From positions 1 through 34,903 of IMG/VR virus record IMGVR_UViG_3300030329_004362: a stretch of DNA of 34,903 nt; one strand, written 5' to 3'. The translations under genes were made by a program, and so were the position numbers. Below are positions 2,987 through 6,018 of the stretch, piece by piece. The notes beneath the pieces are model-generated. The model was given only the letters and a program-made list of their open reading frames with translations, was not told the origin of the DNA and searched no databases. Positions within the stretch are counted from its first letter, which is position 1; each line of letters starts with the position of its first letter. This stretch comes from a virus.

Positions 2987-3714
2987 AAAAGATAAATGAA
3001 GTATATGAAACCTACGATTATAGTTTATTTGATTTTTTGCCTACTAATAGAGATGTAGATAAAAATCATGTTAAAAGAATAAAGAAATCAATGTTAAAAA
3101 GAAGACTATTAACTCCGATTATAATTAATGAAAAGGGGCAGATAATAGATGGTCAGCACAGATATGTTGCTCAAAAAAGTTTAAATATGTCTATTCCTTA
3201 TGTGGTGGAAAAAGGATATGGAGTAGATGAAGCAAAAATACTTAATTTGATTCAGCAAAATTGGAATATAGAAGCTTGGGTAACTCATTATTGTCGGCAT
3301 AATAATGATAACTATATAGCTTATAGAAAATTTAAAAGCAAGTATGGTTTTGAATCAGCACAATGTATTTATATATTAACTCAAGGAAACCCTATTACAG
3401 CAATGTCATTTAAAGCAGGGAACTTTAAGGTTGGTTCTTTAGATGCTGCCTATGAATATGCAGATAAAATATTGTCTTTAAAGCCATATTGTGAAGAATA
3501 TAACAGAAGATATTTTGTGAGGGCTATGATAACTTGTTTTAAGAGAACTTCTAGTGAATTTTCAGCAGCTTATAGCCATGACCATTTTTTATATAAATTA
3601 TCTAAGCAGAATAATTCTTTAGAAAAATGTGTTGATAAGGAGCATTACTTAAAACTAATACAGAAAATTTATAACCATAAGACAATTAAGTCTAAAAAAA
3701 TAAGATTATATTAA
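2983..3714 (+). CDS. ParB/Srx-fold protein, 243 aa
   Basis: Residues 17-75 match the ParB/sulfiredoxin N-terminal fold: a LPTNRDVD segment, a helix that follows, 'LLTPIIINEKGQIIDGQHR' with the hallmark GQHR at 57-60, then a strand. In this family that motif binds nucleotide (CTP in true ParB) and can support nuclease or regulatory roles. The remaining 165 residues are helical, Tyr-rich and basic at the end, and carry no domain I recognise. There is no ParA beside it, so plasmid-type partitioning is unlikely. It stands directly before the ERF gene, which suggests a task in DNA processing or regulation during replication. Confidence 0.8.
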   Translation: MKKINEVYETYDYSLFDFLPTNRDVDKNHVKRIKKSMLKRRLLTPIIINEKGQIIDGQHRYVAQKSLNMSIPYVVEKGYGVDEAKILNLIQQNWNIEAWVTHYCRHNNDNYIAYRKFKSKYGFESAQCIYILTQGNPITAMSFKAGNFKVGSLDAAYEYADKILSLKPYCEEYNRRYFVRAMITCFKRTSSEFSAAYSHDHFLYKLSKQNNSLEKCVDKEHYLKLIQKIYNHKTIKSKKIRLY

Positions 3715-3734
3715 TAAAATAGAAAGGGAAGAAA

Positions 3735-4160
3735 ATGAGTAAACAAGAAACAAGCATTTATAATAAACTTTATAAGGTGCAAAAAGAGATAGGGGCAATT
3801 AGTAAGGATTCTAAAAACCCATTTTATAATTCAAAGTATTTTGATATAAACTCTTTAATCAAACAAGTCACACCAATACTAGAAAAGCATAAATTATTAT
3901 TATTGCAACCTATTAGAGATGGGAAACAATATAGTGTAATAATTGATCTTGATGGTGGTTCTTTTGAATCGTCATTAACATTACCTACTGACTTAGATGC
4001 TCAAAAAATAGGTTCTGCAATAACATATTACAGAAGATATACATTGCAATCATTATTAGCATTACAATCAGAAGATGATGATGGGAATAGTGCAATACCT
4101 AGTAAGAAAAAATCAACAAATAAAAATGCAGTAATGCACGAGGAAGGAATAGGGTTTTAA
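3735..4160 (+). CDS. erf: ERF-family single-strand annealing protein
   Basis: This 141-residue protein fits the ERF recombinase family: an N-terminal helix (SIYNKLYKVQKEIGAISKDS), the N-P-F-Y-N-S-KYF-D-I-N-SL segment (about 28-41), and the strong GSAITYYRRYTLQSLLAL block (93-110). ERF proteins bind single-stranded DNA and anneal homologous strands, which serves recombination and genome circularisation. The C-terminal tail is polar and ends EEGIGF, similar to an SSB tip. It is coupled closely to the XRE-type gene (2-base gap) and lies in the DNA-handling block. Confidence 0.85.
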   Translation: MSKQETSIYNKLYKVQKEIGAISKDSKNPFYNSKYFDINSLIKQVTPILEKHKLLLLQPIRDGKQYSVIIDLDGGSFESSLTLPTDLDAQKIGSAITYYRRYTLQSLLALQSEDDDGNSAIPSKKKSTNKNAVMHEEGIGF

Positions 4161-4977: not shown

Positions 4978-5465
4978 TGTTTCTTGAAATCAAAATTAGA
5001 AAAGATGGAGAGGAAAAATGGGTAAATGCTCATAAGTTTTTTGATTATATGATTAAAGAATATTCTAAGGTTAAATATGAGGGTAAAAAAGTAGACCCTT
5101 ATCCAGATAGAGTTAATAAATTTTACGATAATATCCCAAAAGAATTAATAGATATGTGGGCAAAAGCCTATCCTAATGTAGATATTAAAGGGGAATGTGA
5201 AAAGGCTAGGGTTTGGCTATTATCTAATACAAATAAAGCAAAGAAAGATTTTAAAGGTTTTACAAATAGGTGGCTTGGAAAAGCTTGTCAAAATGGTGGC
5301 TCTATTCCCGTTCAAATGGAACATAAGATAGAGAAACAAATACAAGAACGCAGAGAGTATATGGAAAAATCAAAAGTAGAAGATGCTGCGACAAGAGAAG
5401 AAAAACAAGAAATTATATCAGATATATTAGCAAAATTATCTAAAAAGAAAGGAAGCAAAAAATGA
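4977..5465 (+). CDS. Putative phage replication protein, 162 aa
   Basis: I place the start at ATG 4977, which overlaps the previous stop and follows GAGGTGG; a GTG at 4968 in frame is less likely. Residues about 52-105 carry a segment typical of phage replication initiator and helicase-loader-type proteins: IPKELIDMWAKAYPNVDI, then ARVWLL and FTNRWLGKA (compare the common pattern YP.VD...E...A..WL.....K....F..RWL). The end is charged and helical. Its place after the ERF and SSB-tail genes supports a replication role. No ATPase motif is present, so it is not itself a helicase. Confidence 0.6.
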   Translation: MFLEIKIRKDGEEKWVNAHKFFDYMIKEYSKVKYEGKKVDPYPDRVNKFYDNIPKELIDMWAKAYPNVDIKGECEKARVWLLSNTNKAKKDFKGFTNRWLGKACQNGGSIPVQMEHKIEKQIQERREYMEKSKVEDAATREEKQEIISDILAKLSKKKGSKK

Positions 5466-5674
5466 GCTATGATAAAGACATAGAAATACTAAGGAGAGAA
5501 ATAGGAATCCTTGCAGAAGCAAACCATAAATTGCAAGACAAATTAAACATTGCAATAGAAGGTTTAAAAGCATTAATTTCTGATGGTATCCAATCAGGCA
5601 TCGCTAAGGATACTTTAGAAGAAATCAAAAAATTAGATTTGCCACAAGAAGATCTTAATACGGATTTAAAGTAA
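5462..5674 (+). CDS. Coiled-coil hypothetical protein, 70 aa
   Basis: Its ATG overlaps the upstream stop (ATGA). Residues 5-40 have a heptad pattern of Ile/Leu and should form a coiled coil; the end is acidic. No family is recognised. It is the last gene before the tRNA-like RNA. Confidence 0.65.
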   Translation: MSYDKDIEILRREIGILAEANHKLQDKLNIAIEGLKALISDGIQSGIAKDTLEEIKKLDLPQEDLNTDLK

Positions 5675-5710
5675 GTCGGATTACTTGTGTTAATCACACC
5701 TTGTGGTATT

Positions 5711-5786
5711 GGGGGTGCTAGGTTCGATTATAGGGTTTCCCTTTCTATTGCCTTATAATACGGAGGTTCGATTCCTCCCACCTCCA
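5711..5786 (+). ncRNA. Minimal tmRNA-like / tRNA-like RNA
   Basis: The 76 bases fold as the tRNA domain of tmRNA. Acceptor stem: GGGGGTG (5711-5717) with CACCTCC (5779-5785), seven pairs including G3-U70, then A as discriminator (5786). G3-U70 is the alanyl-tRNA synthetase identity pair, and the stem differs from typical tmRNA (GGGGCTG/CAGCTCC) at one pair only. T arm: GGAGG-TTCGATT-CCTCC (5762-5778), with a canonical T loop. There is no D stem; CTAGGTTCG (5718-5726) resembles the D-loop region of tmRNA. A nine-pair helix, 5727-5735 with 5751-5759, replaces the anticodon arm and has a 15-base loop without a tag frame. CCA is not encoded. A degenerate tRNA or an attachment-site remnant is the alternative. 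Confidence 0.65.
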
Positions 5787-5823
5787 CAAGTTTTATTTAT
5801 CAACTCATCAAGAAAGGCACACT

Positions 5824-6018
5824 ATGACAGACAGAATATATGTAAGAGGGATTCTTCGAGATATGTTGAATCACTATTACGATAATATTGGAAAACCATC
5901 AAAATATACTGGCGACACTATAACACCAAAAATGATATCAAGGGTAACAGAAAGATATTTAGAATTAGGAGGTAAACTTACTCGTGAGGAATGTGAGGCT
6001 GATAGGGAAGGATACTAA
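5824..6018 (+). CDS. Hypothetical protein, 64 aa
   Basis: The start follows AAGAAAGG with suitable spacing. The product is helical and charged and ends in an acidic segment that overlaps the next gene by 35 bases. No family is recognised. Confidence 0.6.
   Translation: MTDRIYVRGILRDMLNHYYDNIGKPSKYTGDTITPKMISRVTERYLELGGKLTREECEADREGY

What the first reader, a model, noticed from the sequence alone, without database searches (positions are those of the whole stretch)
5711..5786. Minimal tmRNA-like RNA without tag frame or pseudoknots
The 76-base element has the tmRNA acceptor stem (GGGGGTG/CACCTCC with G3-U70 and A73), a canonical T arm, no D stem, and a nine-pair helix in the position of tmRNA helix P2, closed by a 15-base loop instead of the long tag-coding part. 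Known tmRNAs that lack the mRNA-like domain are described from some mitochondria; I know of no phage example. If charged with alanine and bound by SmpB it could compete with host tmRNA, rescue stalled ribosomes without tagging, or act as decoy for alanyl-tRNA synthetase.
Basis: partly seen in the sequence, partly recalled or inferred. Interest (0 to 1): 0.9.

Follow-up and report, generated by a model that had tools for sequence, protein, structure and literature searches.

The report
Phage tmRNA without a tag
This phage carries a 76-base RNA gene that is the tRNA-like half of the bacterial ribosome-rescue RNA (tmRNA) with the protein-tagging half missing; such stripped-down copies turn out to be widespread in phages and practically absent from bacterial genomes, which suggests that phages use them to interfere with or bypass the host's ribosome-rescue and protein-tagging system.

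Summary
Window 5711-5786 is a tRNA-like-domain-only tmRNA: acceptor stem with G3-U70 and A73, canonical T arm, stem-less D loop (GGUUCGA) and a 9-bp P2 helix with a 13-nt loop. Rfam tmRNA matches end to end across a ~300-nt deletion (39.7 bits, E 1e-12; below the 47-bit cut-off). It is one of a large, phage-specific family. Two pattern scans of viral contigs gave, with a syntenic relative, 117 distinct 56-85 nt sequences. Position 70, left free, is U in all 155 occurrences. Covariation is strong (0.71 against 0.15 shuffled). The stricter pattern found one match in 257 Gb of bacterial genomes. Six cultured Streptomyces phages carry it, not annotated as a tmRNA. It is not wholly new: one phage case, Mycobacterium phage DS6A, was reported before, and such a molecule strongly inhibits tmRNA in E. 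coli (Mao et al. 2009, cited by PMC4131195 and PMC11915505). What appears new is the breadth, the invariant alanine identity pair, the head-gene contexts and the cultured-phage cases. Most likely mechanism, untested: alanylated, bound to host SmpB, it enters stalled ribosomes in place of host tmRNA, so nascent chains are not tagged.

The parts
5711..5717 (+). acceptor stem, 5' strand (GGGGGTG)
   Evidence: CM R1 61.7 bits; 7 of 7 pairs in all 155 occurrences
5718..5727 (+). stem-less D loop with tmRNA motif GGUUCGA
   Evidence: aligned to RF00023 consensus GGaUUCGA
5728..5736 (+). helix P2, 5' strand
   Evidence: 9 pairs with 5750-5758; anchored pairing in relatives 98-79% over 7 pairs against about 42% shuffled (first pair 98% against 81%)
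5737..5749 (+). P2 loop UUCCCUUUCUAUU (takes the place of tag frame and pseudoknots); complementary over 13 nt to the ribosome-binding site at 3718-3730
   Evidence: complementarity only suggestive
5750..5758 (+). helix P2, 3' strand
5762..5778 (+). T arm (GGAGG-UUCGAUU-CCUCC)
5779..5786 (+). acceptor stem, 3' strand CACCUCC with U70, and discriminator A73
   Evidence: U70 in 155 of 155 occurrences with the position left free
5462..5674 (+). upstream 70-aa ORF, conserved next to the RNA locus in L158 and L163/L164
5824..6018 (+). downstream 64-aa ORF; the RNA fills the 149-nt gap between the two ORFs

Best explanation
It is a phage-encoded tmRNA reduced to its tRNA-like domain (TLD) plus a closed P2 hairpin. 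Shown here: the family, its secondary structure by covariation, the invariant alanine identity pair G3-U70 with A73, and no SmpB gene in any of 50 contigs carrying it. Inferred: RNase P and 3' processing mature it; host AlaRS charges it with alanine; host SmpB binds its D/T elbow; the Ala-RNA-SmpB-EF-Tu complex enters stalled ribosomes as the TLD of tmRNA does and accepts the nascent chain; with no tag frame nothing is added beyond alanine. The net effect is competition with host tmRNA for SmpB and stalled ribosomes, so nascent chains escape tagging, and stalled complexes are either left to other rescue factors or released untagged.
For: Rfam tmRNA matches model 1-374 with the MLD and pseudoknots deleted; 16 of 20 loci tested with relatives exceed the Rfam cut-off. 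U70 in 155/155 occurrences (117 distinct sequences, 87 below 85% similarity) although the pattern left it free; G-U at 3-70 in 84/84 rows of A3 while neighbouring acceptor pairs covary. Covariation 0.706 against 0.149 shuffled and 0.05-0.09 for slid partners. SmpB absent from 50/50 contigs, with the control ringing in 10 genomes. Phage-specific: 44 matching stretches in viral contigs and 1 in bacterial genomes with the same pattern. Linked to translation genes in cultured phages: tRNA arrays plus RNA ligase. Literature: G3-U70 and A73 direct alanylation, D/T loop contacts are needed for SmpB, and a charged TLD with SmpB and EF-Tu was crystallised on a stalled ribosome (PMC3968760); TLD-only RNA strongly inhibits tmRNA in E. 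coli (PMC4131195, PMC11915505).
Against: No transcript, charging or SmpB-binding data. The cited inhibition occurs whether or not the molecule can be charged (PMC4131195), yet the phage RNAs always keep G3-U70, so simple SmpB titration does not explain the conservation. Growth of the hybrid phage lambda immP22 needs tmRNA function (PMC2862035), so blocking rescue would harm that phage. In the window's own lineage the gene is rare: one clear match in 50 terminase-relative records and none in 23 records reached through neighbouring genes, many of them fragments, so it is an accessory gene.
Confidence: 0.6

Rival explanations
1. Tag-less rescue factor that helps the phage: the charged RNA with host SmpB clears ribosomes stalled on mRNAs cut by host defence nucleases or phage enzymes, and the chain leaves with only alanine added. 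The same entry step as the best explanation, but the benefit is recycling of ribosomes, not inhibition of tagging.
For: Invariant G3-U70. lambda immP22 growth needs alanine charging of tmRNA, and a later study cited there found dependence only on ribosome recycling, not on proteolysis (PMC2862035). Organellar tag-less tmRNAs persist together with SmpB (PMC11915505). In Streptomyces phages the gene lies among tRNA genes, mostly near an RNA ligase gene.
Against: Without a resume codon and a stop codon no release step is known; TLD-only RNA inhibited tmRNA in E. coli (PMC4131195).
Confidence: 0.22
2. Attachment site (attP) or integration scar: a copied piece of a host ssrA gene left or used by an integrase.
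For: ssrA is a common integration site; the 3' end of bacterial ssrA occurs in many temperate phages. 7 of 50 contigs carry a tyrosine integrase.
Against: Both ends and P2 are conserved by compensatory change, which an attP does not need. No tyrosine integrase in the window or in 43/50 contigs. DS6A, which carries the known TLD-only RNA, integrates at tRNA-Lys-CTT (PMC10865867).
Confidence: 0.03
3. Processing punctuation: a tRNA-like fold that lets RNase P and 3' nucleases cut polycistronic phage transcripts; charging is incidental.
For: In the clustered groups it is on the strand of its neighbours, in gaps such as terminase/portal and protease/major capsid.
Against: RNase P does not need G3-U70 or the tmRNA D-loop motif, and an ordinary tRNA-like hairpin would serve; several copies stand in tRNA arrays or early regions.
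Confidence: 0.06
4. Decoy for alanyl-tRNA synthetase, or alanine carrier for a reaction outside the ribosome.
For: G3-U70 and A73 invariant.
Against: Would not need the tmRNA-type D loop or a P2 helix of fixed register (7 pairs, 3-nt linker).
Confidence: 0.04
5. Ordinary or degenerate tRNA-Gly, as ARAGORN calls it.
For: only.
Against: No D stem and no 5-bp/7-nt anticodon arm; tmRNA motif; ARAGORN calls only 2 of 117 family members at all.
Confidence: 0.01

Closest known systems
TLD-only tmRNA of Mycobacterium phage DS6A (PMC4131195 Table 2; Mao et al. 2009, cited there and in PMC11915505)
   Different: DS6A is the only phage case that I found described; the present family has 117 distinct sequences in phages with unrelated neighbourhoods. 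The DS6A sequence was not held under two accessions tried, so no direct alignment was made.
Tag-less mitochondrial tmRNAs (jakobids, oomycetes; Rfam RF02544) and ~65-bp plastid tmRNAs of Mallomonadaceae
   Same: TLD with little else, no tag frame
   Different: organellar, the mitochondrial ones found with a nuclear-encoded SmpB; here encoded by phages that lack SmpB
Full-length phage tmRNAs (Streptomyces phage Faust, Mycobacterium phage Bxz1, methylophage Melnitz)
   Same: phage-encoded tmRNA with TLD
   Different: those carry a tag peptide or are two-piece permuted genes; here both acceptor strands are contiguous and the loop is too short for a tag
Canonical bacterial tmRNA (RF00023)
   Same: acceptor stem with G3-U70, A73, D-loop motif, T arm, position of P2
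   Different: no mRNA-like domain, no resume or stop codon, no pseudoknots

Membership tests
tmRNA (RF00023) | acceptor stem with G3-U70 and A73 (alanine identity) | tested here: met
   155/155
tmRNA (RF00023) | stem-less D loop with GG(N)UUCGAC | tested here: met
   the window has GGUUCGAU
tmRNA (RF00023) | T arm of 5 bp with UUCRANU loop | tested here: met
tmRNA (RF00023) | P2 helix between D loop and T arm | tested here: met
   covariation
tmRNA (RF00023) | tag reading frame with resume and stop codon | tested here: not met
   13-nt loop; whole molecule 76 nt
tmRNA (RF00023) | pseudoknots PK1-PK4 | tested here: not met
   no room; ~300-nt deletion against the model
tmRNA (RF00023) | Rfam gathering score 47 bits | tested here: inconclusive
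   window 39.7, not reached; 16 of 20 loci with relatives pass
tmRNA (RF00023) | CCA end | tested here: inconclusive
   A73 is followed by CAA in the window; CCA encoded in 35 of 87 representatives
tmRNA (RF00023) | alanylation, SmpB binding, action on stalled ribosomes | not testable with these tools
   needs biochemistry
TLD-only tmRNA (DS6A type) | phage-encoded RNA consisting of little more than the TLD | tested here: met
TLD-only tmRNA (DS6A type) | sequence relation to DS6A itself | not tested
   record not held under the accessions tried
TLD-only tmRNA (DS6A type) | inhibits host tmRNA | not testable with these tools
   reported for a similar molecule (PMC4131195)
tRNA | D stem and anticodon arm with 7-nt loop | tested here: not met
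attP in ssrA | integrase gene in the phage with the site beside it | tested here: not met
   no tyrosine integrase in the window record; serine integrases not searched, record possibly incomplete

The most novel reading that the evidence does not exclude
Phages of many kinds use a dedicated class of alanylated, tag-less tmRNAs to take over host ribosome rescue; and in the window's lineage the P2 loop is in addition an antisense element that pairs with the ribosome-binding sites of phage genes (13 nt with the gene at 3735, one mismatch in 13 with those at 1993 and 2983), so that one RNA joins ribosome rescue and translational control.
Probability: 0.07. Interest if true: 0.92.

Novelty: new member of a known kind. 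Interest (0 to 1): 0.68.

Why it matters
A phage RNA known from one described case (DS6A) turns out to be common, phage-specific and under strict selection for alanine charging. That points to trans-translation as a battleground between phages and bacteria, and makes the question testable in cultured phages (LuckySocke, Alone3, GiJojo, BRock, Shaeky, pSt2308) in which the gene is not annotated as a tmRNA. ARAGORN, a common annotation tool, finds none of the 117 as tmRNA, so many more may be missed.

Tried and rejected
Direct DNA search with the window region in annotated phages gave only chance and T-arm matches. Microbacterium phages HerculesXL, Mercedes and Juicer have a tRNA-like or T-arm element before DNA polymerase I; CM R1 gives only 23-26 bits there, so they are not counted. 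Pseudomonas phage PaMx31 carries a permuted tmRNA and Synechococcus phage S-CRM01 looks the same from its sequence order, so neither is a minimal one. A control scan with GACTT in place of TTCGA was badly chosen, because GACTT occurs inside TTCGACTT: several of its 12 stretches are ordinary members, the rest look like members with a changed D motif, and all have U70; it is therefore no measure of background. Sigma-70 promoter and intrinsic terminator scans found nothing at 5400-6000. The host was not identified: the terminase is at best about 31-33% identical to cultured phages. Protein structure prediction was not used because the object is an RNA.

Full report
What is there. Window 5711-5786 lies in the 149-nt gap between two small ORFs (5462-5674 and 5824-6018) of a 34.9-kb virus record with tape-measure, terminase and capsid genes. 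The sequence folds as acceptor stem, P2 hairpin and T arm. cmscan aligns it to the tmRNA family RF00023 from the first to the last model position with about 300 positions deleted, 39.7 bits, E 1.1e-12, under the family's cut-off of 47. ARAGORN calls it tRNA-Gly, which the anatomy does not support.

A family. A pattern of acceptor, D motif and T arm found 44 stretches in viral contigs and a single one in 257 Gb of bacterial genomes, a 50-kb contig of a Mycobacterium MAG with one protein near the RNA matching a phage protein family. Together with the window and its syntenic relative they give 155 occurrences and 117 distinct sequences, 56-85 nt long; a few occurrences are the same place held as two loci. 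All have seven acceptor pairs and five T-stem pairs. Position 70 was free in both patterns and is U in every one, which gives the G3-U70 pair that directs alanylation (PMC3968760). A CM built from 24 of them gives 43-82 bits to 87 matches in 88 sources.

Covariation. With fixed anchors and no structural alignment, the seven positions after TTCGA pair with those before a 3-nt linker in 98-79% of 87 representatives. For pairs two to seven the shuffled mean is 40-47%; for the first pair it is 81%. Other registers mostly pair at 30-50%. On the CM alignment 98.3% of cells pair (70.0% shuffled), 432 cells change on both sides (124 shuffled) and the covariation score is 0.706 (0.149 shuffled; 0.05-0.09 with slid partners). 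That alignment is fitted to the model, but the anchored count is not.

The window's own relatives. A relative with 84% terminase identity and 42% identity in the 198-aa gene (G017, L158) has a minimal tmRNA at the same place, with acceptor pair 6-67 C-G instead of U-A and a wholly different 9-bp P2. L163/L164, about 70% identical over 1.75 kb, have at that place an 11-bp hairpin without T arm. Other relatives lack a clear match; many are fragments. The gene is accessory.

Contexts. Recurrent same-strand neighbourhoods are terminase/RNA/portal, protease/RNA/major capsid, helicase/RNA and exonuclease/RNA. Terminase, portal, major capsid and exonuclease were named by PHROG matches; protease and helicase are my reading of the sequences. 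16 of 117 lie within 500 nt of a tRNA gene, 15 of them on the same strand (random positions 6.75). In cultured Streptomyces phages it sits among tRNA genes, in five of the six within a few kb of an RNA ligase gene, unannotated or, in GiJojo, under a hypothetical protein; CM scores are 62-69 bits, Alone3 47. Several of those members change acceptor pairs 4-6 but keep G3-U70. None of 50 contigs has SmpB and 43 of 50 have no tyrosine integrase.

How it most likely works. From established tmRNA biology, a charged TLD with SmpB and EF-Tu can enter a stalled ribosome (crystal structure cited in PMC3968760). The phage RNA keeps the parts needed for charging and for the D/T contacts that SmpB requires, and lacks what is needed for tagging. 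So it should take the place of host tmRNA and leave chains untagged. Whether the benefit is inhibition or tag-less rescue cannot be told from sequence. Inhibition by a TLD-only RNA is reported (PMC4131195, PMC11915505). The strict G3-U70 conservation speaks for a role of the charged form. All steps after the sequence and structure evidence are inference.

What is known. The DS6A phage RNA is the direct precedent; its attB is tRNA-Lys-CTT (PMC10865867), so that RNA is not its attP. Organellar tag-less tmRNAs are the other precedent. I could not read Mao et al. 2009 or align DS6A. The 2025 tmRNA database paper (PMC11915505) names, in the passages read, only DS6A among phages for this form, and rejected some sequences with large internal deletions, which may have hidden others.

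An extra lead. The P2 loop of the window is complementary over 13 nt to the ribosome-binding site of the gene at 3735, and with one mismatch in 13 to those of 1993 and 2983. Shuffled loops reach a run of 13 in 0.4% of cases; the test is not significant in L164 and weak in G017. This is a suggestion only, since purine-rich ribosome-binding sites match many pyrimidine-rich loops, and I looked at several comparisons before this one.

Noticed in passing
window 5737-5749 against 3718-3730, 1977-1989, 2965-2977: P2 loop complementary to three ribosome-binding sites of the phage; CCUUUCU also occurs in the loops of L158 and of the T-arm-less hairpin in L163/L164.
   Followed up: partly
L163 about 1897-1951, L164 about 3238-3292: At the syntenic place an 11-bp hairpin GAGATGGGGAG...CTCTCCATCTC without T arm (z -4.2), perhaps a remnant or another small RNA.
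   Followed up: partly
L126:1462-1524 (HerculesXL), L130:1474-1526, L131:1474-1526: Microbacterium phages (Neferthenavirus) have an unannotated tRNA-like or T-arm element just upstream of DNA polymerase I.
   Followed up: no
L170, L183, L206, L213, L240, L250, L269: The minimal tmRNA lies about 120 nt upstream of the major capsid gene, so it may be made from the head operon.
   Followed up: partly
L281, L286, L289, L290, L291: Members with a changed D motif (TTAGACTT, ATAGACTT or TTTGACTT instead of TTCGA), so the patterns used here undercount the family.
   Followed up: no
L277:2994-3236 (GiJojo gene 44): The RNA gene is covered by an annotated hypothetical protein, probably a misannotation.
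   Followed up: no
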